Shown: piece after piece, positions 1,610-62,559 of the stretch
How positions within the stretch are numbered: position 1 is the first letter of the stretch
How the letters are laid out: each line of letters starts with the position of its first letter
Assembly (NCBI RefSeq): GCF_019039255.1
Contig: NZ_CP077062.1
Span: forward strand, 4,030,001 to 4,094,000
DNA length: 64,000 nt
Source of the DNA: Nocardioides panacis
GTDB taxonomy: Bacteria; Actinomycetota; Actinomycetes; Propionibacteriales; Nocardioidaceae
Direction: 5' to 3'
Position numbers and translations under genes: made by a program
Notes under the pieces: generated by a model
Told to the model about the DNA's origin: nothing
The model's database searches: none
Seen by the model: only the letters and a program-made list of their open reading frames with translations

Positions 1610-1820
1610 ATGAGCGAGCCAACGAACGAGCAGACCGGCCAGGACGACGCCACCAGCGAGACGCCGGAGGTGGGCCTGATCGCGGACGAGCAGCTCCCCG
1701 AGGACCTCCAGCCGGCGAAGAACCCGCTGGCCGCCGACCCCGACGACGAGTCCGACGACAGCGGCTCCGAGGAGCCCCAGGTCGACGGCCTGCCCGACAT
1801 GGGACAGCCGGGGGGCCTAG
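1610..1820 (+). CDS. Small acidic hypothetical protein (frameshift near its end)
   Basis: Starts MSEPTNEQTGQDDATSETPE and contains QLPEDLQPAKNPLAADPDDES. It is strongly acidic and probably disordered, with no domain I can name. As read, the frame does not stop and runs antisense through the whole TetR gene, which is implausible. Removing one G from the G6 run at 1810–1815 gives a TAG at 1818–1820, for a protein of about 69 residues that ends just at the convergent TetR gene. I therefore infer a homopolymer error and a short real gene. Function unknown. Confidence 0.55.
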
Positions 1821-2443
1821 CTCCGGGCCTCGGTGCCCGGCCGGGTGCCGAGCACCCGGGCCACGATCCAGGCGAGGTCGTCGGCGGTGCGCGCCGGCCC
1901 GCCGCCCGGCTGCATCACGTGGCTGAGCACCAGCCGGACGATCGCGTCGACGGACGCGTCCACCTCGGCCGGCGACAGCCCCAGGTCGGGGAACCGGGTC
2001 AGCCGGGCGAGGATCACGTCCCGGGCCGCGGCGATCACCGGGGCGGCGTCGGTGGTGAGGAACGGCAGCAGCGCCGTGTCGGCTCCCGGTGCGCCCGCCG
2101 AGACGCCGTGCGCCGAGGCGAGCATCCGGTTGAGCAGCGGGTTCGCCTGCGCCAGCATGAGGGTCTGCTCGGCGGCGGCCCGGATCGCCTCGACCAGGTC
2201 GTCGTGCGTGTCCAGCTCGTGCGCGACGACGGCGAGGAACCGTTCGAGCTCACGGAGCACCATCGCCTGCCCGAGCGCCGGCTTGGCGCCGTACTCGTTG
2301 TAGACGGTCTGCCGGCTCACCCCGGCGATCGCGGCGACCTTCGCCATCGTCACCGCCGCCCAGCCGTCCTCGACGGTGATCCGCGCGGTGGCGTCGAGCA
2401 CCCGCTCGGGGACCGGCCGCGCGGCCGGGGACGGCTCAGCCAT
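1817..2443 (-). CDS. TetR-family transcriptional regulator (AlkX-like position)
   Basis: A 208-residue regulator. The N-terminal helix-turn-helix spans roughly residues 15–60, with VTMAKVAAIAGVSRQTVYNEYG typical of TetR; a variable ligand domain follows. It is translationally coupled to the rubredoxin gene: its ATG lies inside the last codons of rubredoxin (8-bp overlap), so the two are one transcript. In Rhodococcus-type alkane clusters a TetR gene (alkX) after alkB–rubredoxin represses the cluster. By position this one probably senses alkanes or fatty acids and may bind the large palindrome before alkB (5385–5427). That link is inference. Confidence 0.85.
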   Translation of the reverse strand: MAEPSPAARPVPERVLDATARITVEDGWAAVTMAKVAAIAGVSRQTVYNEYGAKPALGQAMVLRELERFLAVVAHELDTHDDLVEAIRAAAEQTLMLAQANPLLNRMLASAHGVSAGAPGADTALLPFLTTDAAPVIAAARDVILARLTRFPDLGLSPAEVDASVDAIVRLVLSHVMQPGGGPARTADDLAWIVARVLGTRPGTEARS

Positions 2444-2603
2444 GCACGGCCTCGAAGTCGGCCCTGTCGCGCACGCCGCAGTCGGGGCACGGCCAGTCCT
2501 CGGGCACCTCGGACCAGGACGTGCCCGGGGCGAACCCCTCGCGCGCGGCGCCGGCCTGCTCGTCGTACACGTAGCCGCATCCGGGACAGGCGTACCGGCT
2601 CAT
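2436..2603 (-). CDS. rubA: Rubredoxin (AlkG-type)
   Basis: A 55-residue one-iron electron carrier. Two CxxC knuckles are visible, CPGC at residues 6–9 and CPDC at 39–42, spaced as in rubredoxins, with the usual YVYDE, WSEVPEDW and CGV contexts. Rubredoxins of this type pass electrons from rubredoxin reductase to the di-iron centre of AlkB. alkB lies 1.6 kb away on the same strand but is separated from this gene by the opposite-strand gnd. No rubredoxin reductase is seen in the window. The TetR gene overlaps its 3' end. Confidence 0.95.
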   Translation of the reverse strand: MSRYACPGCGYVYDEQAGAAREGFAPGTSWSEVPEDWPCPDCGVRDRADFEAVHG

Positions 2604-2697
2604 CGTCGCTCCTCACTCGTGGCTGGCTGGACGTGCCGCCGAACCTACCGGGCGACGCACCTGGCCGCCCTTGGGTCGCGGTGGAAGGCTGGCTGGC

Positions 2698-4144
2698 ATG
2701 ACGTCGACGCCTGAAGCCACCGCCACCATCGGTCTGACCGGGCTCGCGGTGATGGGCCGCAACCTGGCCCGTAACATCGCCCGGCACGGCCACACCATCG
2801 CGGTGCACAACCGGACCACCTCCCGGATGACCAGCCTGGTCGAGCAGTTCGGCGACGAAGGCACCTTCGTCGGCAGCGAGTCGCTCGAGGACTTCGTCGC
2901 CTCGATCCAGCGACCGCGGGCGATCATCGTGATGGTCAAGGCGGGCGAGGGCACCGACGCGGTGATCGACGACCTGGTGCCGCTGCTCGACGAGGGCGAC
3001 ATCGTCGTGGACGCGGGCAACGCGCACTTCCAGGACACCCGGCGCCGCGAGCAGGCGCTGTCCGCGAAGGGCCTGCACTTCGTCGGCATGGGCGTCTCCG
3101 GCGGCGAGGAGGGCGCGCTCGAGGGGCCCTCGATCATGGTCGGCGGCTCCGACGACGCCTACGCCCGGCTCGGGCCGGTCCTGGAGTCGATCGCGGCCCA
3201 GGTCGACGGCACGCCGTGCTGCGCGCACGTCGGGCCGGACGGCGCCGGGCACTTCGTGAAGATGGTGCACAACGGCATCGAGTACGCCGACATGCAGCTG
3301 ATCGCCGAGGCCTACGACGTGCTGCGCCACCTGGTCGGCCAGGAGCCGGCCGAGATCGCCGAGGTGTTCCGGGAGTGGAACCGCGGCGACCTGGACTCCT
3401 TCCTGATCCAGATCAGCGCCGAGGTGCTCGCGCACGTCGACGCCGCGACCGGCAAGCCCTTCGTGGACGTGGTCGCCGACGCCGCCGAGCAGAAGGGCAC
3501 CGGGCGCTGGACCGTGCAGAGCGCCCTCGACCTGGGCGTGCCGATCACCGGCATCGCCGAGGCCACCTTCGCGCGCAGCATCTCCGGGCACCTCGCCCAG
3601 CGCCGCGCCGCCCAGGCGGTGTTCGAGGCCCCCGACGCGGTCCGCGACCTCGACGACCCGCAGGGCTTCGTCGACGACGTGCGCACCGCCCTGCTGGCGG
3701 CCAAGATCGTCGCCTACGCCCAGGGGGTTCGACCAGATCACCGCCGGCAGCAACGAGTACGGGTGGGGCATCGACCCCGGCGAGATGGCCACGATCTGGC
3801 GCGGCGGCTGCATCATCCGCGCGAAGTTCCTGGACCGCATCGCCGACGCCTACCAGGCCGAACCCGACCTGACCACGCTGCTCACCCAGGAGTACTTCGC
3901 CACCGCCGTCAAGGACGGGGCCGACGCCTGGCGCCGGGTGGTCACCGCGGCCACTGGTGCGGGGGTGCCGGTCCCGGCCTTCGCGACGTCGCTGTCGTAC
4001 TTCGACGCGCTGCGCCGGGACCGGCTGCCGGCCGCCCTGATCCAGGGGCTCCGCGACTTCTTCGGGGCGCACACCTACCAGCGCATCGACCGCGAGGGCA
4101 CCTTCCACACCCTGTGGGCCGAGGAGGGCCGCCCCGAGGTCTGA
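2698..4144 (+). CDS. gnd: 6-phosphogluconate dehydrogenase, decarboxylating, long NADP-type (frameshifted as read)
   Basis: Oxidises 6-phosphogluconate to ribulose 5-phosphate in the oxidative pentose phosphate pathway. The N-terminal Rossmann start is IGLTGLAVMGRNLARNIARHG. The substrate signature GMGVSGGEEGALEGPSIM and the catalytic-lysine region [18 protein letters not shown] are present. The frame breaks at the G5 run 3723–3727: with four Gs the protein continues AYAQGFDQITAGSNEYGWGI and joins the downstream frame, ending GTFHTLWAEEGRPEV, for about 481 residues, the normal long-form length. I read it as one intact gene with an extra G in the assembly. A second, shorter Gnd lies at 58402–59301. 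The gene separates rubredoxin from alkB and ends at a strong convergent terminator. Confidence 0.9.
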
Positions 4145-4151
4145 TCCCCCC

Positions 4152-5375: not shown

Positions 5376-5384
5376 GGGGTACCT

Positions 5385-8703: not shown

Positions 8704-11215
8704 GTGGCCGCCGACCCGATCGCCCGTCTCCTGGCCGACCCGCCGGACCTCCCGGTCGGTGCCGGGCTGGCCGGGCTGACCGCGGCGCTCGGGACCCGCG
8801 GCACCGCGGTGGTGCAGGCGCCCCCCGGGCACCGGCAAGACCACGCTGGTGCCCCCGGCGGTCGCCGCGCTCGTGGGCTCCTCGGGCCGGGTGGTGGTGA
8901 CCCAGCCCCGGCGGATCGCGGCCCGGGCGGCGGCCCGGCGGATCGCGCACCTGCTCGGCGAGCCGGTCGGCCGGACGGTGGGGTACGCCGTGCGCGGCGA
9001 CCGGCGCACCAGCGCGGCCACCCGGATCGAGGTGGTGACCACCGGCGTGCTGCTCCGGCGGCTGCAGCGCGACCCGGCGCTGCCCGGGGTGGCGGCCGTG
9101 GTCCTCGACGAGGTGCACGAGCGCCAGCTCGACGCCGACCTGACCCTGGCGCTGCTGGTCGACGTGCGCCAGAACCTCCGGGACGACCTGCTGCTGGTCG
9201 CGATGTCCGCGACCGTCGAGGCGGCCCGCACCAGCGCCCTGCTGGACGACGCGCCGGTCGTGGCGGTCAGCGGGGCGCTGCACCCGGTCGCCGAGGTCTG
9301 GTGCCCGCTGCCCACCGGGGTGCGCCGCTCCGACGACCGCGGCGTGACCCCGCGCTTCCTGGACCACGTCGCCGCCTGTGTACGACGCGCGCTGGCCGAG
9401 CAGCCCGGCGACGTGCTGGTGTTCCTGCCGGGGGTCGCGGAGGTGTCCGGGGTGGTGCGCCGGCTCGGCGGCGTGGACGCCGACGTGCTCCCGCTGCACG
9501 GGCGGCTGACCTCCGAGGAGCAGGACCTGGCGCTGGCCGCCGGGCCCCGGCGGCGGGTCGTGGTCTCCACCGCGGTCGCCGAGTCGTCACTGACCGTGCC
9601 CGGGGTGCGCACCGTCGTCGACGCCGGGCTGTCCCGCGAGCCGCGCACCGACCACCGGCGCGGGCTCGCCGGCCTGGTCACCGTCGGGGTGAGCCGGGCG
9701 GCGGCCGAGCAGCGGGCCGGTCGCGCGGGGCGCGAGGCCCCCGGTGCGGCGTACCGCTGCTGGTCGCCGGCCGAGCACGCCCACCTCCCCCCGCACCCGC
9801 AGCCCGAGATCGCCACCGCCGACCTCACGTCGTTCGCCCTCGAGCTCGCCGTGTGGGGCACCCCGGACGGCACCGGCCTGGCGCTGATGGACCCGCCGCC
9901 GCAGACCGCCCTCGCGGCCGCCCGGTCGACGCTGGCGGACCTGGGCGCGGTCGACGAGGACGGCTCGGTCACCGACCGGGGCCGGGACATCTCCCGGGTC
10001 GCGGCCGACCCGCGGCTGGCCCGCGCGCTGCTCGACGGGGCCGCCGTGGTCGGCGCCCGGCGCGCCGCCGAGGTCGTCGCGCTGCTGTCCGAGGACGTCC
10101 GCTCGCCCGGTGGGGACCTGGTCGCCGCGCTGCGGGCCGTCCGCCGCGGCGGCGCCGCCGCGGCCGGCTGGTCGTCCTCGGTGCGGCAGCTGCGGGCCGC
10201 GCTGCCCGCCTCGGTCCGGGAGCACGACGGCGAGCGCGGGCTGCCCGACGACCTCGCGGTCGGGCTGGTCGTCGCGCTGGCGCACCCGGGACGGGTCGCC
10301 CGGCAGCGCCCCGGCTCGACGGCCTACCTGATGGCCTCCGGCACCGGTGCCGTGTTCGGCCCCGGCGGGTCCGCCCTGTCCGGCACCACCTGGCTGGCCG
10401 TCGCCGACGCAGACCGCCGCCCCGGGATGCGGGACGCGACGATCCGGTCCGCCGCGCCGATCGACGAGGACCTCGCCCTGGAGGCGGCGGCCGCCCTCTG
10501 GCACGAGCAGGAGCTGGTCGGGTGGGCCGACGGCCGGGTGGTCGCGCGGCGCAGCACCCGGCTCGGCGCCATCGAGCTCGCCTCCGAGCCGATCGCGTCC
10601 CCGGCGCCCGCGCTGGTGGCCGCGGCGGTGCGTGAGGGTCTGCGGGTGGAGGGCCTCGCGGTGCTGCCCTGGACCGAGGCCGCCAGCTCGCTCCGGGCCC
10701 GGATGGCGTTCCTGCACGACGCGCTGGGCGACCCGTGGCCCGACGTGTCCGACGAGGCGCTCACCGCGTCGACCGAGTCCTGGCTCGGCCCGGAGCTCGC
10801 CCGGATCCGCGGCACCCGCGACCTGCGCCGGATCGACGTCCTGTCCGCGCTGCGCCGGCTGCTGCCCTGGCCCGACGCGGGCCGCCTCGACGAGCTCGCC
10901 CCCGAGCGCGTCCGCGTGCCCAGCGGCTCCCAGGTCCGCGTGGAGTACGACGGGGAGCAGCCCGTCCTCGCGGTGCGGATCCAGGAGGCGTTCGGGTGGG
11001 CCGCGACCCCACGTCTCGCCGACGGCCGCGTGCCGCTGCTGCTGCACCTGCTGTCCCCGGCCCGGCGCCCGGCCGCGGTGACCGCCGACCTGGAGTCGTT
11101 CTGGCGCACCGGCTACCCGGCGGTGCGGGCCGAGCTGCGCGGGCGCTACCCGAAGCACGCCTGGCCGGAGGACCCGTGGACGGCCCCGCCCACCCGCGGC
11201 GTCCGCCGGAGGTAG
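8704..11215 (+). CDS. hrpB: ATP-dependent helicase HrpB (DEAH family), frameshifted as read
   Basis: A DExH/DEAH RNA-helicase-like protein of about 836 residues. The P-loop is split by an extra C in the C6 run 8821–8826: with C5 it reads QAPPGTGKTTLVPPAV and joins the downstream frame. After it come VTQPRRIAARAAARRIA (Ia), the DEVHER box (II), SATVE (III), VLVFLPG (IV), VVSTAVAESSLTVPGV (V) and the QRAGRAGREAPG box (VI), then HrpB-type C-terminal domains. The start is GTG 8704, four bases after the LURP-one stop. Cellular role poorly known in bacteria. The single homopolymer lesion suggests a sequencing error rather than a pseudogene. Confidence 0.88.
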
Positions 11216-16927: not shown

Positions 16928-17612
16928 ATGTCCCTTGACCAGCGCACCGGCGATCCCGAAGCCGCGCACCCGATCACCCGGTTCTCGCACCGGGCGAACG
17001 CGGTGCTCGACGGCCTCGTCGACGCGCCCACCTGGACCCTGACGGCCGCGGAGGCGGGCGCGGCGCTCGTCGACCTCACCCGGCTCCAGGCGCGGGTCGC
17101 CGAGCTCCGGCTCCGGGTGCTCGCCGCTGCGGACACCCTCGACGTGGGCGCCGACAGCGGGTGCATGCCGCGGGCCGGCGGCGTCAACGCCACGGTCGTG
17201 GTCACGATGACGCTGGAGCAGCTCCTGTCCGGGCTGGGCGCGGCCGGTCTCGACACCGGTGACCGGATCTCGGCCGGCGCGGCGCGGCGGCTCGCCTGCC
17301 GGGCCGGCCTGGTCCCGGCCGTGCTCGGTGGCGCCTCCCAGGTGCTCGACCTCGGCCGCACACGGCGCCTCCACTCCCGCGCGCAGCGGCTCGCCCCCCG
17401 GCCTCGAACAGGGCGGCTGCTCCGCGGAGAGCTGCGACCGCCCGGCCGCGTGGACCGAGGCTCACCACGAGGTGCCCTGGTCCGAGGGCGGCGGGACCAG
17501 CGTCCGCGCCGGCCGGCTGCTCTGCTCGCGGCACCACCACCTGGCGCACGACTCGCGCCAGGAGATGACCCGGCTCGCCAGCGGTCAGGTGCGCTTCCAC
17601 CGGCGGACGTGA
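16928..17612 (+). pseudogene. DUF222/HNH endonuclease (13E12-type) remnant: internal deletion plus frameshift
   Basis: The ends match the actinobacterial DUF222–HNH repeat family. The N-terminus is EAAHPITRFSHRANAVLDGL, followed by LRLRVLAAADTLDVGADSG. The C-terminus has the HNH core DRPAAWTEAHHEVPWSEGG and LLCSRHHHLAHD. Between these, the long middle of DUF222 (normally around 200 residues) is missing: the protein jumps from GADSG straight to the segment before RISAGAARRLACRAGL. In addition an extra C in the C6 run 17394–17399 shifts the frame just before the HNH core. The frameshift may be a sequencing error, but the internal deletion looks real, so the gene is probably decayed. Intact members may be mobile-element-like nucleases. 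Confidence 0.75.
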
Positions 17613-24912: not shown

Positions 24913-25885
<973 letters not shown>

Positions 25886-29854: not shown

Positions 29855-29942
29855 TGGTGCGCGAGGGGGGGAGTTGAACCCCCACGCCCTTTCGGGCACA
29901 CGGACCTGAACCGTGCGCGTCTGCCTATTCCGCCACTCGCGC
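29855..29942 (-). tRNA. tRNA-Leu (anticodon CAG)
   Basis: Minus-strand class II tRNA. Acceptor GCGCGAG pairs with CTCGCGC, the discriminator is A, and CCA is encoded. The anticodon loop is TTCAGGT with CAG, in a stem ACGG/CCGT. There is a long variable arm (GTGCCCGAAAGGGCGT) and a T-arm GGGGGTTCAACTCCCCC. It sits before fhaA, as in other actinobacteria. Confidence 0.97.
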
Positions 29943-30161: not shown

Positions 30162-30938
30162 GTGGGAATACTGCAGAACTTCGAGAACCGACTCGAGCAG
30201 ATGGTCTCCGGCGTCTTCGCCAAGGCCTTCCGCAGCGCCGTGCAGCCCGTGGAGATCGCCTCCGCCCTGCAGCGTGAGGTCGACAACTCCGCGCAGATCC
30301 TCTCCCGCAACCGGCGGCTGGTGCCCAACCAGTTCCACGTCGAGCTCTCCGCGCAGGACCACGAGCGGCTCTCGCCGTACTCCTCGACGCTCGCCCAGGA
30401 GCTCACCGAGATGCTCCGCGACCACGCGCACGAGCAGTCCTACGTCTTCACCGGGCCGGTCACGATCGCCTTCGACGAGCGCGACGACCTGTCCACCGGC
30501 CGGTTCCGGGTGCGCAGCGCCGCGCTGGCCAAGGTCACGCCGGTCTCGGACCGTTCGGTCACCGACACCGCCGTACGACGGGCGAAGGTGATCCTGGAGG
30601 TCAACGGGATGAAGCACCCGCTCGACCCGCCCGGCATCGTGATCGGCCGTGGCAGCGAGGCCGACCTGCGGATCAACGACCCGGGCGTCTCGCGCCGGCA
30701 CGCGGAGATCCGGGTGCACGCGAACGACGCCGGCACGGACGTCAGCGTCGTGGACCTCGGCTCCACCAACGGCATGCTGGTCAACGGCAGCAAGGTGCAG
30801 CAGGCCACGCTCGACGACGGCGGCACGATCAAGATCGGGAACACCACCATGACCGTCCGGTTCCTGCCGTCCACGGGCGGCCCGGCCCCCCCGCACCTCC
30901 GGCACCAGCGGATGGGGTGGCGACGGTGTCTGAGCTGA
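30162..30938 (+). CDS. fhaA: FHA domain protein FhaA (DUF3662 + FHA)
   Basis: 258 residues. The N-terminal DUF3662 domain (MGILQNFENRLEQMVSGVFAKAF, about 1–120) is followed by a short linker and one FHA domain (VIGRGSEADLRINDPGVSRRHAEI, then VVDLGSTNGMLVNG) that binds phosphothreonine. In mycobacteria FhaA binds phosphorylated MviN/PknB substrates and tunes peptidoglycan synthesis. The long disordered linker of Mycobacterium FhaA is absent. The start is GTG 30162, with AGGAGGCGGGC before it. The tail after FLPSTGG follows a C7 run (30886–30892); if one C is extra, the protein would end at TGA 30930–30932, overlapping fhaB, so its last residues are uncertain. Confidence 0.93.
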   Translation: MGILQNFENRLEQMVSGVFAKAFRSAVQPVEIASALQREVDNSAQILSRNRRLVPNQFHVELSAQDHERLSPYSSTLAQELTEMLRDHAHEQSYVFTGPVTIAFDERDDLSTGRFRVRSAALAKVTPVSDRSVTDTAVRRAKVILEVNGMKHPLDPPGIVIGRGSEADLRINDPGVSRRHAEIRVHANDAGTDVSVVDLGSTNGMLVNGSKVQQATLDDGGTIKIGNTTMTVRFLPSTGGPAPPHLRHQRMGWRRCLS

Positions 30939-34334: not shown

Positions 34335-35797
34335 ACAAGCCGATCCGCACGATGTCCATCTTCTGCATGCTGCTGTTCGCGGCGCTGCTGCTGAACACCA
34401 CCTACCTGCAGTACGTCGACGCCGGCAGCCTCAACTCGCGCGGCGACAACAAGCGGGTGCGCGACGCGGAGTTCTCCCGCAAGCGCGGCGCGATCGTCGC
34501 CGGTGGCTCGTCGGTGGCCGAGAGCGTGCAGAGCGACGACGCCTACAAGTACCAGCGGGTCTACAAGCAGCCCCGCAAGTACGCCCCGCTGACCGGCTAC
34601 TACTCCTACATCTACGGCCGCTCGGCGGTGGAGTCCAGCCAGAACGAGATCCTCTCCGGCAGCGACCCGCGGCTGTTCGTCAACCGGGTCGTGGACATGC
34701 TCGGCAACAGCCAGCCCAAGGGCGGCTCAGTGACGCTGACCGTCGACCCCAAGGCGCAGACCGCGGCGTACGACGGGCTGCGGGCCCTGGGCAGGAACGT
34801 CGAGGGCTCGGTCGTCGCGCTCGACCCGTCGACCGGCAAGGTGCTCGCGCTGGTCACCTCCCCGACGTACGACCCGAACCGGCTCGCCTCGCACAGCTTC
34901 AGCGACGTGCAGAAGGCCTGGAACGAGCTCACCGCCGACAAGAACCGGCCGCTGCTCGACCGCGGGATCCAGGAGGTCTACCCCCCGGGATCGACGTTCA
35001 AGCTGGTGACCGCCGCCGCGGCGCTGTCCAGCGGGCAGTACACCCCCGACACCAAGGTCAAGGGCGGCGCCAGCCTCGACCTGCCGCAGACCTCGACCGA
35101 CCTCGTCAACGAGAACGGCAGCAACTGCGGCGGCGACCCGATCACCCTGACCCAGGCGCTCGAGGTGTCCTGCAACGTGTCGTTCGGCGACATCGGGCTG
35201 CGGCTCGGCGACGACGCGCTGCGGGCACAGGCCGAGAAGTTCGGGTTCGACCAGACCTACCTCAACGACCTGCCCGGGCAGGTCAAGAGCCGGTTCCCGG
35301 AGAGCCCGGACGAGCCGCAGACCGCCCTGTCCGCGATCGGCCAGTTCGACGTGGCGGCCACCCCGCTGCAGATGGCCATGGTCGCGGCCGGGATCGCCAA
35401 CAACGGCACGGTGATGCGGCCCTACGTCGTCGACGAGGTGCAGGCACCCGACCTGTCCAGCCTGGAGAAGACCAGCCCCGAGGCGCTGCGCAGCAACGCG
35501 GTCTCGTCCTCGGTGGCCCGCGACCTGACCCAGATGATGGTCGAGGTGGTCGACAACGGCACCGGGACCACGGCGCGGATCCCGGGCATCAAGGTGGCCG
35601 GCAAGACCGGCACCGCGCAGAGCTCGCCGGATCGGCCGCCGTACGCCTGGTTCGTGTCCTTCGCGCCGGCCGACAACCCCAAGGTCGCGGTGGCGGTGCT
35701 CGTCGCGGACGCCGGCGTGGCCCGCGACGCGATCTCCGGCAGCGGCCTGGCCGCACCGATCGCCAAGAACGTCATGGAAGCCGTGATCGGCAAGTGA
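34331..35797 (+). CDS. pbpA: Penicillin-binding protein PbpA (class B transpeptidase)
   Basis: 488 residues. One N-terminal transmembrane helix ([15 protein letters not shown]…), then a pedestal domain ([16 protein letters not shown]). The transpeptidase domain has STFK (active-site Ser in [11 protein letters not shown]), SCN in [11 protein letters not shown] and KTGT in [12 protein letters not shown]. Crosslinks peptidoglycan at the cell pole/septum with RodA. ATGA overlap with rodA, and a GTGA overlap into pknA. Confidence 0.96.
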
Positions 35798-37409
35798 GCG
35801 GGGACCAGCGGCTCCCCGACGCGCCCCGCTACCGGCTGGACTCGCGCATCGCGACCGGCGGCATGGGCGAGGTCTGGAAGGCCACCGACACGGTGCTCGG
35901 CCGCGAGGTCGCGGTCAAGGTGCTCAAGCCGGAGTACGCCGACGACGCGACGTTCCGGAGCAGGTTCGAGACCGAGGCCCGCAACGCGGCGGCGCTGCAC
36001 CACCCCAACGTCGCGGCCGTCTTCGACTTCGGCGAGCTCCCCCCGATCCGGCCGGGAGCGGCGGGCCGCCGCAGCCCTACCTCGTCATGGAGCTGGTCCG
36101 CGGCGAGCCGCTGTCCGCGCTGCTGCGCGGCGGGGAGCCGATGCCGCCCGAGCCGGCCGCCGAGCTGCTGGCCCAGGCCGCGGACGGGATCAGCGCCGCG
36201 CACGCGCTCGGCATCGTGCACCGGGACGTGAAGCCGGCCAACCTGCTGGTCACCCCTGACGGCACCCTGAAGATCACCGACTTCGGCATCGCCCGGGCCG
36301 CCGACGCGGTCGCGCTGACCCAGACCGGCCAGGTCATCGGCACCCCGCAGTACCTCTCCCCCGAGCAGGCCGAGGGCAAGGCGGCCACCGCGGCCAGCGA
36401 CATCTACTCCCTCGGCGTGGTGCTCTACGAGTGCCTGGCCGGACGGCGCCCCTTCGACGCCGACAGCCCGATCGCCACCGCCCTCGCGCACCTGCGCGAC
36501 GACCCGCCGCCGCTCCCCGACGAGGTCCCCGAGCACCTGCGCGAGACCGTCCGGGTCGCGCTCGCCAAGGACCCCGCCGCGCGGTTCGGCTCCGCGGCGG
36601 CGTTCGCCACGGCGCTGCACGGCGGCCCGGTGGTCGGCGGCGCGGGCACCCCCGCGGACCCGGGCGCCGACGCCCCGACGGTGGTGGCCGCCTCCGCCGC
36701 CGCGCCGGTGGCCGGTGCGGCCGTGGCCGCCGCGGCAGCCGGGCACGACGCCGACGACGGCACCCGCGTGCTGTCCGCCCCCGACGACGTGCCGCCCCGC
36801 GGCCCCCGCGGTCCGGCTCCCGCTCCGCCGCCCGGCCCGGCCGAGCGGCGACGTACGCCGGGCTGGCTGCCGTGGGCCGCGGCCGCGGCCGCCGTGCTCG
36901 TGGTGGTGCTGGTCGTCTCCCAGCTCGGCGGCAACGGGGACGACCCCGCGGCGCCGACGTCCGGGGACTCCCCGTCGGCGACCAAGGGCTCGAAGGCGCC
37001 CTCCCGCAGCGCCTCGCCGAAGCCGAGCCCGTCGCGCACCCCGTCCGCCAGCGACACCCCGAGCGAGACTCCGTCCGCGTCGCCGTCGGAGTCGCCGTCC
37101 GCGCAGACCGTGACCGTCGACCCGGCCGCCTACGTCGGGCGGCCGGCGAAGGACGCCCGCAAGGACCTCGAGAAGCTCGGCCTGACCGTCGCGGAGACCA
37201 CGGTGGAGAACCCCGGCGACCAGGAGAAGGACGGGGTGTCCGGCGTCAGCCCCTCGGGCGAGGTCGAGCCCGGGTCGACGGTGACGCTCTCGGTGTACGG
37301 CGACCCGGTGCAGGTCGAGGTGCCCGGCGCGAGCACCGGCCCGAGCACCGGCGCGGACACCGGCCCGGGCAACGGCAAGGTCAAGGGAAAGGTCAAGAAG
37401 CAGCCATGA
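35794..37409 (+). CDS. pknA: Ser/Thr kinase PknA with one extracellular PASTA domain (frameshifted as read)
   Basis: About 538 residues when repaired. The glycine loop [12 protein letters not shown] and Lys in [10 protein letters not shown] lie in the first frame. A missing C in the C6 run 36039–36044 would restore [23 protein letters not shown] and join the second frame. That frame has catalytic [24 protein letters not shown] and the [13 protein letters not shown] activation segment. An Ala/Pro-rich juxtamembrane region, a transmembrane helix ([17 protein letters not shown]) and a single PASTA-like domain ([23 protein letters not shown]…) follow. Actinobacterial PknA often lacks PASTA, so the domain is notable. 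Controls shape and division with PknB. Confidence 0.88.
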
Positions 37410-39189
37410 GCAACGATCAGCCCGAGGGCAACGGTCCCCGCGTCGGGGGTCGCTACGTGCTCGGCGACCTGCTCGGACGCGGCGGGATGGCAGAGGTCCG
37501 CAAGAGCACCGACGTCCGCCTCGGGCGGGTGGTCGCGGTCAAGCGGCTGCGCACCGACCTGGCCAGCGACCCGACCTTCCAGGCACGCTTCCGCCGCGAG
37601 GCGCAGAGCTCCGCCTCCCTGAACCACCCCGCGATCGTGTCGGTCTACGACACCGGCGAGGAGCCGTCGACCGACGGGTCCGACGTCCCGCAGCCCTACA
37701 TCGTGATGGAGTACGTCGCCGGCCGGACGCTGCGCGAGATCCTCCGCGAGGGCCGCAAGATCCTGCCGGAGCGGGCCCTGGAGATCACCTCGGGCGTGCT
37801 CGCGGCGCTGGACTACAGCCACCGGGCCGGCATCGTGCACCGCGACATCAAGCCCGCCAACGTGATGCTCACCCCGAGCGGCGACGTGAAGGTGATGGAC
37901 TTCGGCATCGCCCGGGCGCTGGCCGACGCGTCCTCGACGATGACCCAGACCGCGGCCGTCGTCGGCACGGCGCAGTACCTCTCCCCCGAGCAGGCCCGCG
38001 GCGAGACCGTGGACTCCCGCAGCGACGTGTACTCCACCGGCTGCCTGCTCTACGAGCTGCTCACCGGCCGGCCGCCGTTCGTCGGCGAGAGCCCGGTGTC
38101 GGTGGCCTACCAGCACGTCCGCGAGCAGGCGCCGCCGCCGTCCTCGATCGACGGGGACCTCACCCCCGAGATCGACGCGATCGTGATGAAGTCGCTGACC
38201 AAGCGCGTCGAGGACCGCTACCAGAGCGCCGCCGCGATGCGCGCGGACATCGAGCGGTACCTCGCCGGCAAGCCGGTCGCGGCGCCCGTCGTGCCCGTGT
38301 CCGGGAACGGCTTCGTGCCCGACCACGAGCCCACCTCGATGTTCACCGGGGTCCGTGACGACGAGCCCGAGGAGGAGCGCAAGAAGCGCTGGCCGCTGGT
38401 GCTGGCGATCCTCGGCGTGGTCGCCCTGCTGGTGGCGGCCGCCGTCGTCGGCCCGATGCTGTTCAGCTCCGCGCCCGAGACCCGGACCGTGCCGCAGGTG
38501 GTCAGCATGACCCAGCCGCAGGCCGAGGCCCGGATCAAGGCGGCCGGGCTGGTCGTCGGTGACGTGTCGAAGGAGGCGTCCGAGGACGTCGCCAAGGGCC
38601 AGGTCATCGCCCAGGACCCGGACCCGCTCTCGACGCTGCCGCCCGGCGACCCGGTGGACCTCACCGTCTCGACCGGCCAGCCCGACGTGGTGGTGCCGGA
38701 CATCCTCGGCGACGACAAGGACACCGCCCGGCAGAAGCTCACCGACGCCGGGCTGCGCGTGAAGCTGGTCCAGAAGAAGTCCGACGAGCAGCAGGACATC
38801 GTCATCGACAGCGACCCGCGCCCGGCGACCAGCGTCACCAAGGGCAGCCTGGTCACCGTCGTCTACTCGGCGGGCCCGCAGCAGGTGCCCAGCGTCGTCG
38901 GCCTCAAGGAGGGCGCCGCGCGCGCGAAGCTGGAGAAGGCCGGGTTCAAGGTGGACTCCGTGCAGGACTCGCAGACCGAGTCGACCAAGGGCACCGTGCT
39001 CAAGCAGAGCCCGTCGGCGTTCACCACCCAGCCGCAGGGCACCACCGTGGTGATCACGGTGTCGAGCTACGAGCCGCCGAGCCCCACCCCGACGCCGACC
39101 CCGACGCCGACCCCCACCCCGACCCCCACGCCGACCCCGACCGTGCCCACCCCGCCCACCGAGTCGCCGTCGGTCCCACCCCCGCCTGA
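37406..39189 (+). CDS. pknB: Ser/Thr kinase PknB with three PASTA domains and TP-rich tail
   Basis: The kinase domain covers about residues 15–280: LLGRGGMAEVRKS, VVAVKRLRTD, GIVHRDIKPANVMLTP, VMDFGIARAL and [14 protein letters not shown] transmembrane helix (WPLVLAILGVVALLVAAAVV) is followed by three PASTA domains and a (TP)n tail. PASTA domains sense muropeptides or lipid II. As read, the frame runs on to 39406 and becomes antisense to DUF881. Adding one C to the C5 run 39179–39183 yields PSVPPPA and a TGA at 39187–39189, inside the terminator hairpin; this is the end I prefer. Overlaps pknA by ATGA. Confidence 0.9.
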
Positions 39190-39197
39190 GGCGGGGG
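39179..39197. terminator. Terminator hairpin at the pknB 3' end
   Basis: CCCCCGCC (39179–39186) and GGCGGGGG (39190–39197) around the 3-base loop TGA, the probable pknB stop codon. It lies between convergent pknB and DUF881, and ends the long fhaA–pknB operon. Confidence 0.7.
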
Positions 39198-39254
39198 ACC
39201 CGGGACCACAGGACCAGGGGTCGAGCCGGGACTCGTGCGGGCTCGAGCCGGGGG

Positions 39255-40058
39255 TCAGGCCGCGGGCTTGGCGTACTCGAGCTCGGTCGAGCCGGAGTAG
39301 CCGGGCAGGTCTACCGAGTCGTGCGTCTCGACGCTCCAGCCGAGGCCGGACTCGGCGACCACCCGCAGGTAGAGCTGGATGTACGGGCTGGTCGTCACCG
39401 AGGTGAGCATGTCGTCGGTGGGGCCGATCGCGGTGATGCGGTACGGCGGCGAGTAGGGCACGCCGTGCAGGATCACCACGTTGCCCACGCACTTCACGCC
39501 GGTCGTGGAGACCACGCGCTGGTCCTGGATCGTCATCGCCTCGGCCCCGCCGGCCCACAGCGAGTTCACGACCGCCTGGATGTCCTGCTGGTGCACGAGC
39601 AGCTCGCTCACCGCGGACAGGTCGTCGCCGGCCGCGTCGAGCGCCTGCTTGGGCGCGTCGTCGAGCGTGATCGTGACGCCCGGGCCGTGCACCGGGGACA
39701 GCCCGGCGGGTGCCTCGAGGGCCTTGGCCTTCCTCTGCTCGACGGTCCCGCCGACGGTGCCGAGGTCGGCGGTCAGCCGGTCGACCTCGGTGGTGAGGTC
39801 GGCGGCCCGGGTCCGCAGTCCCTCCAGGTCCTTGGCCTGCGCGTTGGCCAGGCCGTCCAGGTCGTCGTACCTCCCGGCCCGCAGGTCCATGCCGCGCGAG
39901 CTGACCATGCTGGTGACGAACAGGATCCCGGCGACCAGGAAGACCGCCGGCCCGAGGAGTCGCCAGACCAGCCCGCGCGAGCGGTAGGTCCGGGTCCGCG
40001 CCGCGAAGGCGGTCGCCAGCCGGGCGTGCCAGCTCTGGCGGTGCGGGTGCGTGGTCAT
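39255..40058 (-). CDS. DUF881 membrane-anchored coiled-coil protein
   Basis: 267 residues. One N-terminal transmembrane helix (LLGPAVFLVAGILFVTSMV), a coiled coil (DDLDGLANAQAKDLEGLRTRAADLTTEVDRL) and the DUF881 domain (VHGPGVTITLDDAP, DIQAVVNSLWAGGAEAMTIQDQRV, ILHGVPYSPPYRITAIG). The family resembles Mycobacterium Rv0012-type proteins beside crgA and pknB; DUF881 has weak similarity to SpoIIIAG-like or divisome factors. Likely in the envelope with CrgA. Divergent from crgA. Confidence 0.9.
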   Translation of the reverse strand: MTTHPHRQSWHARLATAFAARTRTYRSRGLVWRLLGPAVFLVAGILFVTSMVSSRGMDLRAGRYDDLDGLANAQAKDLEGLRTRAADLTTEVDRLTADLGTVGGTVEQRKAKALEAPAGLSPVHGPGVTITLDDAPKQALDAAGDDLSAVSELLVHQQDIQAVVNSLWAGGAEAMTIQDQRVVSTTGVKCVGNVVILHGVPYSPPYRITAIGPTDDMLTSVTTSPYIQLYLRVVAESGLGWSVETHDSVDLPGYSGSTELEYAKPAA

Positions 40059-54199: not shown

Positions 54200-56373
54200 T
54201 CAGATGTCGAGGAAGCGGACGTCCTTGGCGTTGCGCTGGATGAACGAGCGCCGCTGCTCGACGTCCTCGCCCATCAGCACCGAGAACATCTCGTCGGCCT
54301 GCGCCGCGTCCTCGAGGGTGACCTGGAGCAGGAGCCGGTTGTCCGGGTCCATCGTGGTCTCCCACAGCTCGTTGGCGTTCATCTCGCCCAGGCCCTTGTA
54401 GCGCTGGATGGCGTTCTCCTTGGGCAGCTTCTTGCCCGACTCCTGGCCGACCCGCACCATCGCGTCGCGCTCGGCGTCGGAGTAGACGAACTCGTGCTCG
54501 GCCGGCTTGTTCCAGCGCAGCCGGTAGAGCGGCGGCTGCGCGAGGTAGACGTAGCCGTGCTCGATGAGCGGCTTCATGAACCGGAACAGCAGGGTCAGCA
54601 GCAGGGTCCGGATGTGGTGGCCGTCCACGTCGGCGTCGGCCATCATCACGATCTTGTGGTAGCGGACCTTGTCGATGTCGAACTCTTCGTGGATGCCGGT
54701 GCCGAGCGCGGAGATGATCGCCTGCACCTCGGTGTTGGCCAGCACCTTGTCCAGGCGGGCCTTCTCGACGTTCAGGATCTTGCCGCGGATCGGCAGGATC
54801 GCCTGGATGCGCGGGTCCCGGCCACCCTTGGCGGAGCCACCGGCCGAGTCGCCCTCGACCACGAAGATCTCGCACTCCTCGGGGTTGGTCGACTGGCAGT
54901 CGGCGAGCTTGCCGGGCAGGCCGCCGCCGCCGAGCAGGCCCTTGCGGCTGCGCGCCAGGTCGCGGGCCTTGCGGGCCGCGATCCGGGCGGACGCCGCGGC
55001 CTGCGCCTTGCGGACGATGTCGCGGCCCTCGGCCGGGTTCTTCTCCAGCCAGGCGCCGAGCTGCTCGTTGACCACGCGCTGGACGAAGCCCTTGGCCTCG
55101 GTGTTGCCGAGCTTGGTCTTCGTCTGGCCCTCGAACTGCGGCTCGCCGAGCTTGATCGAGATGATCGCGGTGAGGCCCTCGCGGACGTCGTCGCCGGAGA
55201 CCCGGTCCTCCTTCTTCTTGATCAGGTTCCACTCCTCGCCCCAGTTGTTCACCAGGGACGTGAGCGCGGAGCGGAAGCCCTCCTCGTGGGTGCCGCCCTC
55301 GTGGGTGTTGATGGTGTTCGCGAAGGTGTGCACCGACTCGGAGAACGTGGTGTTCCACTGCATCGCGACCTCGAGGCTCATCCCGCTCTCGGGCAGCTCG
55401 GCGTCGAACGCGATCACGCTGGCGTTGGCCTTGTCCTTGCGGCGGTTCAGGTGCTCGACGTAGTCCACCAGGCCGCGGTCGAAGCAGAACCGGTGCTCGA
55501 TGACGCCCTCGACGGCGCTCGACCGGTCCACCACCGGTGCGTCCGGGTCGTGCGTGGCCGCGCCCTCGGCGTCCTCGGCGATCGCGTCGGCGACGCCCGC
55601 CATGTGCGCCCGCTCGTCGCGGATGATGATCTCGAGGCCCTTGTTGAGGAAGGCCATCTCCCGGAGCCGGTTGGTGATCGTCTCGAGGGAGTACGTCGTG
55701 GTCTCGAAGATGTCCTCGCTGGCCCAGTAGGTGACCGTCGTACCGGTCTGCTCGTCGGGGCCGAGCGGCTCGAGCTGCTCGAGGGGGCCGTCGGGCACGC
55801 CGAGGCTGAAGGTCTGCCGCCAGTGGTAGCCACGGTTGCGCACGTCGACCTGCAGGGTGCTGCTGAGCGCGTTGACGACCGAGACGCCCACGCCGTGCAG
55901 ACCGCCGGAGACCTTGTAGCCGCCGCCGCCGAACTTGCCGCCGGCGTGCAGCATCGTCAGCGCCATCGTCACGGCCGGCATGTCCTGGCCGGGCGCGGTG
56001 TCGGTGGGGATGCCGCGGCCGTTGTCCTCGACCCGGACGCCGCCGTCCTCCTGCAGCGTCACCTTGATGCTGGTGGCGTAGCCGGCCAGCGACTCGTCGA
56101 CGGAGTTGTCGACGATCTCCCAGACCAGGTGGTGCAGGCCGCGCTCGCCGGTGGAGCCGATGTACATGCCCGGGCGCTTGCGGACCGCCTCGAGACCCTC
56201 GAGGACCTGGATCGCGGAGGCGTCGTACTTGCCCTCCTCGACCGCGTGGCTCTCGCCCATCGGCGCGAGCGCGAGGGCCGCCTCGGCGATCGCCTCGGCG
56301 GGGATGTCGGTCTGCGGGGGAGCGGTGTCTGGGTCGCTGGTCGGGGGGTGTTGGCGGGCATCTCTTCAGCCAC
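54200..56373 (-). CDS. gyrB: DNA gyrase subunit B (frameshift near N-terminus as read)
   Basis: About 724 residues when repaired. The GHKL ATPase has [24 protein letters not shown] and [14 protein letters not shown]. The TOPRIM domain has [23 protein letters not shown], and DADVDGHHI binds Mg. As read, the longest frame starts at ATG 56260. Adding one C (minus strand) to the six-base run at 56343–56348 links it to a GTG at 56373, giving a start [19 protein letters not shown]…[20 protein letters not shown], with AGAGGA ahead of it, as I would expect in relatives. Upstream 56374–56626 (about 250 bp) holds no gene and presumably the promoter. Confidence 0.95.
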
Positions 56374-58401: not shown

Positions 58402-59301
58402 TCAGCCCTGGTCGCCGCCGGGGGGCGCGCTGGTGCGCGTGGCGTGCCCGCCGAACTGGTTGCGCATGGCGGCGACGGCCTTCATCGCGGGGCTGTCGTC
58501 CTGGCGGGAGACGAACCGCGCGTAGAGGGCGGCGGTGATCGCCGGCGTGGCGACGGCGTTGTCGATGCCGGCCTCGACGGTCCAGCGGCCCTCGCCCGAG
58601 TCCTCGGCGTAGCCGGCGATCTGCGAGAGCGCGTCGTCGTCGTCGAGCGCGGCGACGAGCAGGTCGAGCAGCCAGGACCGGATGACCGTGCCCTCGCGCC
58701 AGGAGCGGAACACCTCGGTGACGTTCTCGACCTCGTCGACCGCGCGGAGCAGCTCCCAGCCCTCGGCGTAGGACTGCATGATGGCGTACTCGATGCCGTT
58801 GTGGACCATCTTGGAGAAGTGCCCGGCGCCGACCTTGCCGGCGTGCACCCAGCCGAACTCGCCCTCGGGCTTGAGGGCGTCGAAGACCGGCTGGACGACC
58901 TTGATGTTCTTCGGGTCGCCGCCGGCCATCAGCGCGTAGCCGTTCTCCAGGCCCCAGACGCCGCCGGAGACGCCGCAGTCGACGAAGCCGATGCCCTTGT
59001 CCGAGAGCAGCTCGGCGTTCAGCTTGTCGTCGGTCCAGCGCGAGTTGCCGCCGTCGACGATCACGTCGCCGTCGCCGAGCAGCTCCTTGAGGGCCTTGAC
59101 CGTCTCCCGGGTGGGGTCACCCGCGGGCACCATCACCCAGACCACCTTGGGGGAGGGCAGGGCGGCGACGAGCGCCTCGAGGCTCTCGACGTCGCTCACG
59201 TCCGGGTTACGGTCGTAGCCGACCACGGTGTGCCCTGCGCGGCGGATGCGCTCGCGCATGTTCCCGCCCATCTTGCCGAGGCCGATCAGACCGAGCTCCA
59301 T
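58402..59301 (-). CDS. 6-phosphogluconate dehydrogenase, short NAD+-type (YqeC/GntZ-like)
   Basis: 299 residues. Rossmann start [46 protein letters not shown] (short-form signature), and [26 protein letters not shown] with the catalytic Lys/Asn. Short Gnds favour NAD+. Its place between dnaN and recF is conserved in actinobacteria. The window thus has two non-identical 6PGDHs, the other at 2698–4144. Confidence 0.95.
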
Positions 59302-59380
59302 GCCGCTCCTTCGAGGTGTGTGGTTCCCCGCCGGGCGGGGTGGGTGCGTCCGGGCTCAGGCTACTCGCGCCGGAGTGCGC

Positions 59381-60529
59381 TCAGGAGAGCAGCCGGCGCG
59401 GCATGAGCAGGTAGCGGAAGGCGCCGTCGACGTCGCCGTCCAGGCTGCTGGCACCCGACATCACGGCCGGCTTGGACGCCTGGGTGAACGCGAGCTCGAC
59501 GACCGGGTCCTCGAGCGCGGTCAGGCCGTCGAGGAGGAACTGCGGGTTGAACCCGGTGGTGATGTCCTCGCCGGTGACGACGGCCTCGATCTGCTCGGTC
59601 GCGAGCGCCTCGTCGCCGCTGCCGGCGTCCAGCGTCAGCACGCCCGCGGAGAACGCGAGCTGCACGGCGGTGTTGCGCTCCGCGACCAGCGAGACCCGCT
59701 TGACGGACTCCACCAGGGTGGCCCGGTCGACCCGGGCGACGGTGGCGTGCTGGGCGGGGAACAGCGTGCGGACCTTGGGGAACTCGCCGTCCAGGAGCCG
59801 GGTGGTGGTCCGTCGTACGCCGCCGCCGGCCGCGCCCTCGAAGCCGATGATGCCCTCGCCCGCGCCGGACGAGGCCAGCGCGATGGTCACCTCGGTCCCG
59901 GACGTCAGCGACTTGGCGGTGTCGGCGAGGACCTTGGCAGGGACCAGCGCGGCCGCCGACACGTCGGTGGCGCCGGGGTTCCACTCGAGCTCGCGCAGGG
60001 AGAGCCGGAAGCGGTCGGTGGCCAGCAGCGAGATCGCCGAGCCCTCGATCTCGATCCGGACGCCGGTCAGCACCGGCAGCATGTCGTCGCGGCCGGCCGC
60101 GGTGACGGCCTGGGCGACGGCGTTGGCGAACAGGTCGCTGCGCACCGTGCCGGTGGCCTGCGGCATGTCCGGGAGGGTGGGGTACTCCTCGACCGGCATC
60201 GTCTGGAGGCTGAACCGGGCCGAGCCGCACACCAGCGAGACCTTGGAGCCCTCGACGGTCATCTCGACGGGCTTGTTGGGCAGGCTGCGGCAGATGTCGG
60301 CGAGCAGGCGGCCGGAGACCAGCGCCTTGCCCTCGTCCTGGACGGAGGCCGGCAGCGTCGCGCGGGCGGACGTCTCGTAGTCGAACGTGGACAGCTGCAG
60401 ACCGTCGCCGCCCTCGACCGTCTCGATCAGCAGGCCGGCCAGGACCGGGACGCTGGGTCGCACCGGCAGGCTGCGTGCCGCCCAGGCAACGGCATCGGCG
60501 AGCACGTCGCGTTCGACGGTGAACTTCAC
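59381..60529 (-). CDS. dnaN: DNA polymerase III beta subunit (sliding clamp)
   Basis: 382 residues from GTG 60529 with GGAGGAGACC before it. Three clamp domains; typical phrases are [42 protein letters not shown] and the C-terminal YLLMPRRLL. Encircles DNA as a dimer and tethers polymerase III. The longer frame upstream lies in the origin region. Confidence 0.98.
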
Positions 60530-60659
60530 TGGTCTCCTCCATGGCTGCGAGCGGCGTGTGCAGCAGCGGTCTTCCGGGGTGTGCATCCTGCCACGCGCCG
60601 TGCGGCTCCGGCAGAGGGAGTCACCAAGTTGTGGTTCGCCGCGGCCGAGCCGGTGCGGG

Positions 60660-60962
60660 CCGCGAGGCAGGTTGTCCCCAGGTCGGGGCGGGGAGAGATG
60701 TTTCCGGAGATTCGGATCATGTACAGGTCAGTAGTGTTAACAGGTGCGGTGGACAGTGTGGATAACTCGTGTCGTCGCAGGTCAGACCCGGTTTGGCCGT
60801 CCCGCCGCCCTGTGGACGACGACCCGGTCAAGCTGAGCGGCCTGTGCACGGCCGGCTGGGTCGGTCGGCCGTCGACAGGGTTGTCCACAGTCGGTGCACC
60901 GAGGAACGACACGAAACCACAGCCTCGTCCCCAGGCCGGGCGGCCCGGGAACGGGTTGTGGT
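60660..60962. other. oriC: Candidate origin of replication (oriC), dnaA–dnaN intergenic region
   Basis: The 433-bp gap between dnaN and dnaA (60530–60962) holds no gene. DnaA boxes include TTGTCCCCA (60672), TGTGGATAA (60757, exact TTATCCACA on the other strand), TGTGGACGA (60811) and TTGTCCACA (60881, exact). An AT-richer patch, about 60700–60740 (with GTTAAC), could unwind. In Streptomyces and Mycobacterium oriC lies in this same gap. The dnaN promoter is presumably here too. Confidence 0.8.
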
Positions 60963-62559
60963 TCACGACTGCCGGGCCTGCTGCTTGATCCGGTTGGTCA
61001 GCTCGGTGACCTGGTTGTAGACGCTGCGGCGCTCGGCGAGCAGCTGCCGGATCTTCTTGTCCGCGTGCATCACGGTGGTGTGGTCGCGGCCGCCGAACTG
61101 CTGGCCGATCTTGGGCAGCGAGAGCTCGGTGAGCTCGCGGCACAGGTACATCGAGATCTGCCGGCCGGTGACCAGCACCCGGCTGCGGCTCGGGCCGCAC
61201 AGGTCGTCGATCGACAGCCCGAAGTAGGCGGCCGTCTGGGCGATGATCAGCGCCGCGGTGATCTCCGGCTCGCCGCCCTCGGGGATCAGGTCCTTGAGCA
61301 CGATCTCGGCCAGCGTGAGGTCGACCGGCTGCCGGTTGAGGCTGGCGAAGGCGGTGACCCGGATCAGGGCGCCCTCGAGCTCGCGGATGTTGGTCTGGAT
61401 CTTGCTGGCGATGAACTCCAGCACGTCCGGCGGCGCGGTCATCCGCTCGGTGGCGGCCTTCTTGCGCAGGATCGCGATCCGGGTCTCCAGGTCGGGGGGG
61501 CTGCACGTCGGTGATCAGGCCCCACTCGAACCGGTTGCGGAGCCGGTCCTCGAGCGCCTCGAGCCGCTTGGGAGCCCGGTCGGAGGTGATCACGATCTGC
61601 TTGTTCGCGTTGTGCAGGGTGTTGAACGTGTGGAAGAACTCCTCCTGGGTCTGGATCTTGCCTTCCAGGAACTGGATGTCGTCGATCAGCAGCACGTCCA
61701 CGTCGCGGTAGCGCCGCTTGAACCGGTCCTGCCGGTCGTCGCGGATCGCGTTGATGAACTCGTTGGTGAACTCCTCGGAGCTGACGTAGCGGACCCGCGC
61801 CCCGCTGAACAGGCTGCGGACGTAGTGCCCGATGGCGTGCAGCAGGTGGGTCTTGCCCAGGCCGGAGTCGCCGTAGATCAGCAGCGGGTTGTAGGCCTTG
61901 CCGGGAGCCTCCGCGACGGCCACCGCGGCGGCGTGCGCGAAGCGGTTCGACGAGCCGATGACGAAGGTCTCGAAGATGTACTTCGGGTTGAGCCGGGTCT
62001 CCATCACGCTGCCCGCGCCGGACTGGGGCCGCGAGGAGGCGGGCTGGGCCGGCGTCGGCACGTCCAGCGGATTTGTCGACAAATGGCTAAATGGATTCAG
62101 GGTGGAGTCGTCGTCGTCCTCGGCGCCGTCGGGTCCCGGGGTCGGCGCGTCGACGGCGCCGCCGTACTCCCCGAGGCCGCGGAACTCCGAGCCGCCGTAG
62201 CCGGTGGCGGGACGGTCCGTGCGGTCCAGCCCACCGAGCTCGGGGTCGACGGTGACCGCGATCCGGACCTGGCGGTCGAACGAGGCGCCGAGGGCGTCCT
62301 CGAGGCGGGTGCGCAGCCGGCCCTCGATCTGGTTGCGGGTGAAGTCGTCGGCGACCGCGATGATCGCGGTGCTCTCGTGCAGCGTCACCGGATGGCTGCC
62401 GGCCAGCCAGGCGCGCTGGTTGGGCGGCAGGTCCTCGACCAGGGCGCTCCAGACCCGGTCCAGCTGCGCCGGTCCGCTCCGGTCGGGGTGCTGATCACGG
62501 GCGGCGTCGCCGCCGAAGCCGTCGGGAAAGGTGTCGTTCGGGGTGTCACTCACGGGCAC
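60963..62559 (-). CDS. dnaA: Chromosomal replication initiator DnaA (frameshifted as read)
   Basis: About 531 residues when repaired. Domain I ([19 protein letters not shown]), an acidic/Pro-rich domain II, the AAA+ domain with [18 protein letters not shown] and [12 protein letters not shown], and domain IV with the signature [15 protein letters not shown]. One extra base in the seven-base run 61494–61500 breaks the AAA+ domain; with six bases it reads [21 protein letters not shown] and joins the downstream frame. dnaA is essential, so the lesion is almost certainly a sequencing error. Starts at GTG 62559 (GTG 62553 possible); the RBS is weak. Confidence 0.97.

What the first reader, a model, noticed from the sequence alone, without database searches (positions are those of the whole stretch)
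1810..61500. Recurrent one-base indels in G/C homopolymers break essential genes
Nine genes are restored to full, family-like proteins by changing one base in a G or C run of 5–7: the small acidic ORF (1810–1815), gnd (3723–3727), hrpB (8821–8826), HNH (17394–17399), second AKR (25545–25549), pknA (36039–36044), pknB tail (39179–39183), gyrB N-terminus (56343–56348) and dnaA (61494–61500). Both insertions and deletions occur, and dnaA, gyrB and pknA should not be inactive. This points to unpolished long-read or similar sequence. Gene-level conclusions from this contig (pseudogene counts, gene fusions) should not be trusted unrepaired.
Basis: partly seen in the sequence, partly recalled or inferred. 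Interest (0 to 1): 0.75.

Follow-up and report, generated by a model that had tools for sequence, protein, structure and literature searches.

The report
Sequencing errors in G/C runs
Many genes of this Nocardioides-like soil bacterium look broken only because runs of G or C have the wrong length in the deposited sequence, almost certainly a sequencing or polishing error, so missing-gene claims from this genome should not be trusted.

Summary
Six frame breaks are confirmed by relatives: gnd, hrpB, DUF222-HNH, second AKR, pknA, dnaA. The small acidic ORF is supported by both homologues found. The gyrB site touches only a variable N-terminal tail (686-residue core open); the pknB tail is inconclusive. 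Breaks run along the sampled chromosome: an HMM strict frame switches in 864 kb, against 6 in 1.56 Mb of 79 related loci; an 80th locus, from the similarly affected genome TF02-7, has 5 and was set apart. Of the 67, 47 lie within 25 nt of a run of six or more (background 1.3%); 55 have the one-extra-base direction. The only dnaA and hemC and the only above-cut-off argH are split, yet in five window genes the sequence past the break stays conserved in the shifted frame. Genome-wide indel error in an insufficiently polished assembly is by far the best explanation. Platform and true run lengths cannot be told without reads. Corrections: 'both insertions and deletions' is not shown (the other direction equals one missing or two extra bases), and gyrB is not inactivated.

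The parts
1810..1815 (+). G6 run at the end of a small acidic ORF; the reading frame runs on past the end seen in relatives
   Evidence: run; homologues in G003 and G001 stop at the matching place, 3 other relatives gave no match in the 72 kb searched
2698..4144 (+). gnd (NADP-dependent 6-phosphogluconate dehydrogenase) split between two frames at run 3723-3727
   Evidence: 6PGD domain 1-160 and 160-290 in different frames; gnd model 2-332 and 334-466; 9 of 9 relatives in one frame; HMM switch at 3725
8704..11215 (+). hrpB helicase split at run 8821-8826
   Evidence: 7 of 7 relatives with both pieces side by side in one frame; DNA of the relatives at the site; HMM switch at 8828
16928..17612 (+). 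DUF222-HNH gene split at run 17394-17399; this copy also lacks about 190 aa inside DUF222
   Evidence: DUF222 in one frame, weak HNH match (E 0.0007, just below the family cut-off) in another; 9 of 9 relatives in one frame; shortened relative to other copies
24913..25885 (+). second aldo/keto reductase split at run 25545-25549
   Evidence: Aldo_ket_red 2-188 and 218-286 in different frames; 7 of 7 relatives in one frame
35794..37409 (+). pknA-type kinase split inside the kinase domain at run 36039-36044
   Evidence: Pkinase 1-66 and 74-257 in different frames; 5 of 5 relatives in one frame
37406..39406 (+). pknB with PASTA domains; the alleged break at 39179-39183 lies in a low-complexity tail
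   Evidence: kinase and PASTA domains in one frame; frame of the tail ambiguous
54200..56260 (-). gyrB core, 686 aa, open; the run at 56343-56348 lies upstream in a variable N-terminal tail
   Evidence: gyrB model 1-639 of 639; the 80 loci align from residue 1-12 of the query; tail frames
60963..62559 (-). dnaA, the only Bac_DnaA match in the genome, split at run 61494-61500: ATPase domain in one frame, DNA-binding domain in another
   Evidence: DnaA model 17-267 and 268-437 in different frames; single match in the genome; 69 of 69 named loci with both pieces in one frame

Best explanation
The frame breaks are base-level errors of the assembly, not features of the organism. During sequencing or consensus making, the length of G or C runs (mostly of six and more) was miscalled, usually by one base too many, in a 72% GC chromosome that was assembled into one contig but not adequately polished. 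Shown: the breaks, their clustering at runs, their spread over the sampled chromosome, their rarity in most relatives, and their presence in single-copy core genes. Inferred: that the DNA of the cell carries different run lengths, and that a long-read-type technology is responsible.
For: Strict frame switches 67 in 864 kb (window 8, two 400-kb samples 29 and 30) against 6 in 1.564 Mb of 79 related loci, stable over four HMM penalties, P at most 4e-22, and 5 in 800 kb of ten other single-contig genomes of the family. 47 of 67 within 25 nt of a run of six or more, background 1.3%. In 464 kb, coding G/C runs with a switch within 25 nt: length 5, 4 of 554; 6, 21 of 96; 7, 4 of 13; 8, 2 of 2; in the 79 loci 1 of 1524, 0 of 219, 0 of 8 for lengths 5, 6, 7. 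Excess of runs of 7 and 8: 6.0 and 1.1 per 100 kb against 1.5 and 0.0. Split, with pieces meeting near the break: dnaA and hemC (one gene each in the genome), argH, recB, narG, xylB, glutamate decarboxylase, transhydrogenase beta. For five window genes the third codon position differs more than the first and second on both sides of the break. No spurious switch in 40 simulations on a relative.
Against: No reads or second assembly of this strain were available. 20 of 67 strict switches have no run of six within 25 nt (argH is one), and window switch 32740, perhaps 39074, looks like an HMM mistake. Not all relatives are clean: TF02-7 has 16 strict switches in 72 kb and G003 has 4 in 72 kb though 0 in 80 kb elsewhere; I read these as errors of those assemblies, which I could not prove. 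Long runs alone prove nothing: G042 has 5.0 runs of seven or more per 100 kb and no switch in 80 kb. The skew to one extra base differs from the false deletions described for one long-read assembly (PMC12007338, passages). Completeness is listed as 99.96%, so the errors do not show in that measure.
Confidence: 0.95

Rival explanations
1. The indels are real: a strain with unchecked slippage at G/C runs (mutator or long culture) accumulated recent frameshifts genome-wide.
For: Actinobacterial NucS mismatch repair does not repair 1-2 base indels in M. smegmatis (PMC11551767, passages), so run slippage is a plausible natural weakness; a NucS gene is present and open here.
Against: Several hundred breaks by extrapolation, including the only dnaA and hemC, should not be survivable. 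79 related loci have about 20 times fewer.
Confidence: 0.03
2. Ordinary pseudogenes: the genes decayed naturally.
For: The DUF222-HNH copy has also lost about 190 aa, so this one may be a true pseudogene.
Against: In the five window genes tested the coding pattern persists after the break; dnaA, hemC and argH are core genes; breaks sit mostly at long runs.
Confidence: 0.01
3. Programmed frameshifting or polymerase slippage at the runs makes full proteins from the broken frames.
For: Breaks sit mostly on homopolymers, as slippage sites can.
Against: Relatives carry the pieces in one frame, for example dnaA 69 of 69, and at the dnaA, gnd and hrpB sites mostly lack the long run (one hrpB relative has a C6 there); unrelated genes are hit along the sampled chromosome.
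Confidence: 0.01

Closest known systems
Systematic homopolymer indel errors of long-read bacterial assemblies (Homopolish PMC8011154, passages; Kastor PMC12007338, abstract, outline and passages)
   Same: Indels mainly in homopolymers, shifting frames in many coding genes and inflating pseudogene counts; visible by comparison with homologues.
   Different: Here G/C runs of six and more and mostly one extra base; the main example in PMC12007338 had mainly false deletions, most often at A/T runs. Platform unknown here.
Homopolymer phase variation in mycobacteria (mentioned in PMC11551767, passages)
   Same: Length change of a run switches a frame.
   Different: Here spread over the sampled chromosome and in single-copy core genes, not confined to dispensable switch genes.

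Membership tests
Homopolymer indel errors of an insufficiently polished assembly | Indels concentrated in homopolymers | tested here: met
   47 of 67 strict switches within 25 nt of a run of six or more, background 1.3%
Homopolymer indel errors of an insufficiently polished assembly | Error rate rises with run length | tested here: met
   4 of 554, 21 of 96, 4 of 13, 2 of 2 for lengths 5-8 in 464 kb
Homopolymer indel errors of an insufficiently polished assembly | Blind to gene function, spread genome-wide, rare in relatives | tested here: met
   window plus 40 sampled stretches spread over the chromosome, 18% of it; dnaA, hemC, argH split; 79 related loci about 20 times fewer; two relatives, TF02-7 and part of G003, are exceptions
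Homopolymer indel errors of an insufficiently polished assembly | Accurate reads show other run lengths | not testable with these tools
   no reads or second assembly of the strain held
Deletion-dominated long-read consensus error as in the main example of PMC12007338 | Mostly false deletions | tested here: not met
   55 of 67 strict switches have the one-extra-base direction; other platforms or basecallers not excluded
Homopolymer phase variation | Confined to dispensable or switchable genes | tested here: not met
   dnaA and hemC, each the only copy in the genome, are split
Natural pseudogenes | Relaxed constraint after the break | tested here: not met
   coding pattern kept after the break in five of five genes tested, of nine sites; HNH, not in that test, has an internal loss
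Programmed frameshifting | Conserved slippery site and frame change in relatives | tested here: not met
   relatives lack the frame change; their DNA at the dnaA, gnd and hrpB sites mostly lacks the long run

The most novel reading that the evidence does not exclude
The run lengths are real: an actinobacterium whose mismatch repair ignores indels lives with hundreds of frame-breaking G/C runs, either as a mixed population or by reading through them with slippage.
Probability: 0.03. Interest if true: 0.85.

Novelty: not a real feature. Interest (0 to 1): 0.15.

Why it matters
The genome is listed as one contig, 99.96% complete, yet several hundred genes are probably mis-read (extrapolated from 18% of the chromosome). 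Pseudogene counts, gene-loss and gene-fusion claims, and protein sets taken from it would be wrong. Another single-contig Nocardioides genome, TF02-7, has an even higher density of frame switches in the one 72-kb stretch examined (16), so the problem is not unique.

Tried and rejected
A first homology scan with all ORFs of at least 100 aa of five relatives gave many frame 'events' in every genome, because antisense shadow frames align in GC-rich DNA; it was replaced by the HMM and by per-gene tests with pieces. In one search the second AKR piece was taken in the wrong frame; one search repeated it in the right one. The same slip made the second AKR piece miss its family; one search corrected it. 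Of the HMM's twelve window switches, 15782, 30916, 45635 and 57243 fit neighbouring or overlapping genes, since the old frame stops within 23 nt; 32740 lies at the border of a PP2C gene and an FtsW gene and is probably a misplaced gene boundary, although it passes the strict filter and is counted among the 67. L112:10973 (a split GyrB paralogue) failed the strict filter and is not counted, though its domains are split.

Rows dropped before a count: from the 80 named loci, L040 (TF02-7, 5 of the 11 switches) was set apart. The three relatives that trained the HMM (Nj, G001, Npoch) are not independent controls; Nj and Npoch also occur among the 79 loci. In two of the ten control genomes the HMM saw a lower coding fraction (G014 0.72, G050 0.65), so it may be less sensitive there. 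Recall in simulation was 234 of 320 one-base duplications, all in runs of five or more well inside genes of one training relative (49 candidate sites, reused), so 67 is a lower bound.

Of eleven sample breaks whose two pieces both went to NCBIfam, eight matched one family on both sides (recB, narG, an acetate-CoA ligase, xylB, hemC, argH, glutamate decarboxylase, transhydrogenase beta) and three did not; further pieces were given singly. Of fifteen given in pairs to Pfam, four matched one family on both sides; the others had complementary domains, a match on one side or none. The breaks given were chosen mainly by length of the pieces, not at random.

No paper on frame breaks in this genus was found in two searches (terms Nocardioides and frameshifted; Nocardioides, complete genome, Nanopore, homopolymer), both with no result; the genome itself is unnamed and could not be searched for.
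Full report
What the window is. The window is bases 4,030,001-4,094,000 of a single-contig, 4.90-Mb genome listed as 99.96% complete. Its GyrB is 87% identical to that of Nocardioides jiangsuensis, and most of the 80 matches kept are Nocardioides or other Nocardioidaceae. This is a soil-bacterium genus; it is not a listed pathogen or close kin of one (recalled).

The nine sites. I tested six of them by taking the protein piece before and the piece after the run, in the frame the HMM gave (for HNH, the frame of the domain), and asking whether relatives carry both pieces in one frame. They do for gnd in 9 of 9 loci, hrpB in 7 of 7 in which both pieces lie side by side (9 tried), pknA in 5 of 5 and dnaA in 5 of 5, AKR in 7 of 7 (two of these are distant paralogues) and DUF222-HNH in 9 of 9. 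For dnaA I repeated it on the 80 named loci: 69 hold both pieces and all 69 have them in one frame. Domain models agree: the gnd model is matched 2-332 in one frame and 334-466 in the other, DnaA 17-267 and 268-437, Pkinase 1-66 and 74-257, Aldo_ket_red 2-188 and 218-286.

Weaker sites. The small acidic ORF has homologues in two of five relatives, and both end at the matching place with a stop, while the window frame runs on. gyrB is not broken in the sense claimed: the ORF 54200-56260 matches the gyrB model over 1-639 of 639. Upstream of it an in-frame stretch of 35 codons resembles, by eye, the tails of some relatives but has no start codon before the next stop, so an indel at 56343-56348 is possible but would touch only a variable tail. 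The pknB tail is a proline/threonine repeat that differs among relatives, and the HMM changes frame about 105 nt before the named run; this site stays undecided. The HNH copy lacks about 190 residues that other copies have, so it may be a decayed paralogue in any case.

Is it more than chance? I built a 3-periodic Markov HMM with start, stop and frameshift states, trained on 70 long ORFs of three relatives. A strict switch needs the old frame to stay open more than 60 nt past the switch, the new frame to be open at least 10 nt before it, and at least 90 nt coding on both sides. It gives 8 in the window, 29 and 30 in two 400-kb samples of the same chromosome, against 6 in 1.564 Mb of 79 related loci. 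An 80th locus, L040 of TF02-7, has 5 in 22 kb and was set apart; with it the count is 11 in 1.586 Mb. The ratio to the 79 loci is 14 to 27 for four penalties. Ten other single-contig genomes of the family give 5 in 800 kb. In simulation the method finds 234 of 320 single-base duplications with no spurious switch. Extrapolated, the chromosome would hold about 380 strict switches, or roughly 500 after allowing for recall.

Relatives that are not clean. In the syntenic 72-kb stretches, TF02-7 has 16 strict switches and G003 has 4, whereas Nj and G001 have none and Npoch one. G003 has none in 80 kb elsewhere. Both are single-contig genomes; I take their switches as errors of the same general kind, without proof.

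Where they lie. Of the 67 switches, 47 are within 25 nt of a run of at least six identical bases; random coding positions give 1.3%. In 464 kb, 21 of 96 coding G/C runs of six, 4 of 13 of seven and 2 of 2 of eight carry a switch, but only 4 of 554 of five; in the 79 loci the numbers are 0 of 219, 0 of 8 and, for five, 1 of 1524. This genome also has many long runs: 6.0 runs of seven and 1.1 of eight per 100 kb, against 1.5 and 0.0; but one control genome, G042, has 5.0 runs of seven or more per 100 kb without a switch, so long runs alone are not proof. 55 of 67 switches have the direction of one extra base; the other 12 are equally one missing or two extra, and three of those lie at runs of eight.

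Which genes. In the samples the breaks split hemC (pieces 1-54 and 52-292, no other copy), argH (1-363 and 364-452; three weaker matches elsewhere, all under the cut-off, are likely paralogues), recB and narG, xylB, glutamate decarboxylase and transhydrogenase beta, phytase, a CoA transferase, a subtilase and an EAL protein, and a GyrB paralogue. The argH break has no run of five or more within 40 nt. The only Bac_DnaA match of the genome is the broken dnaA.

Why an error and not biology. A cell cannot be expected to live without DnaA (established knowledge). In dnaA, gnd, hrpB, AKR and pknA the differences from relatives keep the coding pattern, third position highest, both before and after the break, so the part behind the break has been under selection in the shifted frame until very recently at least. 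Relatives encode the sites of dnaA, gnd and hrpB mostly without a long run, which speaks against a conserved slippage signal. The best biological rival is unchecked run slippage: NucS, the actinobacterial mismatch repair enzyme, does not repair 1-2 base indels in M. smegmatis (PMC11551767, passages read), and a NucS gene is present and open here. That explains why such runs might vary in nature, but not several hundred simultaneous breaks including core genes.

Compared with what is known. Homopolymer indels that shift frames and inflate pseudogene counts are the described residual error of long-read assemblies (PMC8011154, passages; PMC12007338, abstract, outline and passages). The main example in PMC12007338 had mostly false deletions; here extra bases dominate, so I do not name a platform. 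The finding is ordinary and an artefact, but it matters for anyone who uses this genome.

Noticed in passing
L102-L105 (Nocardioides sp. TF02-7, NZ_CP092535.1, syntenic 72 kb): This public complete genome also has many strict frame switches (16 in 72 kb), only 6 of them within 25 nt of a run of five or more, so its error profile differs.
   Followed up: partly
L090-L093 (G003, syntenic 72 kb): Four strict switches, all in the one-missing-or-two-extra direction and all near runs of five or more, but none in 80 kb elsewhere in that genome. Unexplained clustering.
   Followed up: partly
16928-17612: This DUF222-HNH copy lacks about 190 aa of DUF222 in frame, compared with other copies in the same genome: it looks like a decayed member of a multi-copy family.
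   Followed up: partly
58402-59301: A second, shorter 6-phosphogluconate-dehydrogenase-like ORF, about 40% identical to the broken gnd over the matched part.
   Followed up: no
L112:10973: A second GyrB-like (type IIA topoisomerase B) gene elsewhere in the genome is split between two frames next to a C7 run.
   Followed up: partly
30886-30892 and 63877-63883: Two further C7 runs lie near the ends of an FHA-like gene and a YidD-like gene (names recalled from the translations); one search shows frame events there with some relatives. Whether the tails are affected was not settled.
   Followed up: partly
38990-39190: The pknB tail is a long proline/threonine repeat in which two frames score as coding.
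   Followed up: partly
29855-29942: ARAGORN calls a tRNA-Leu(cag) here that Rfam does not list at its gathering score.
   Followed up: no
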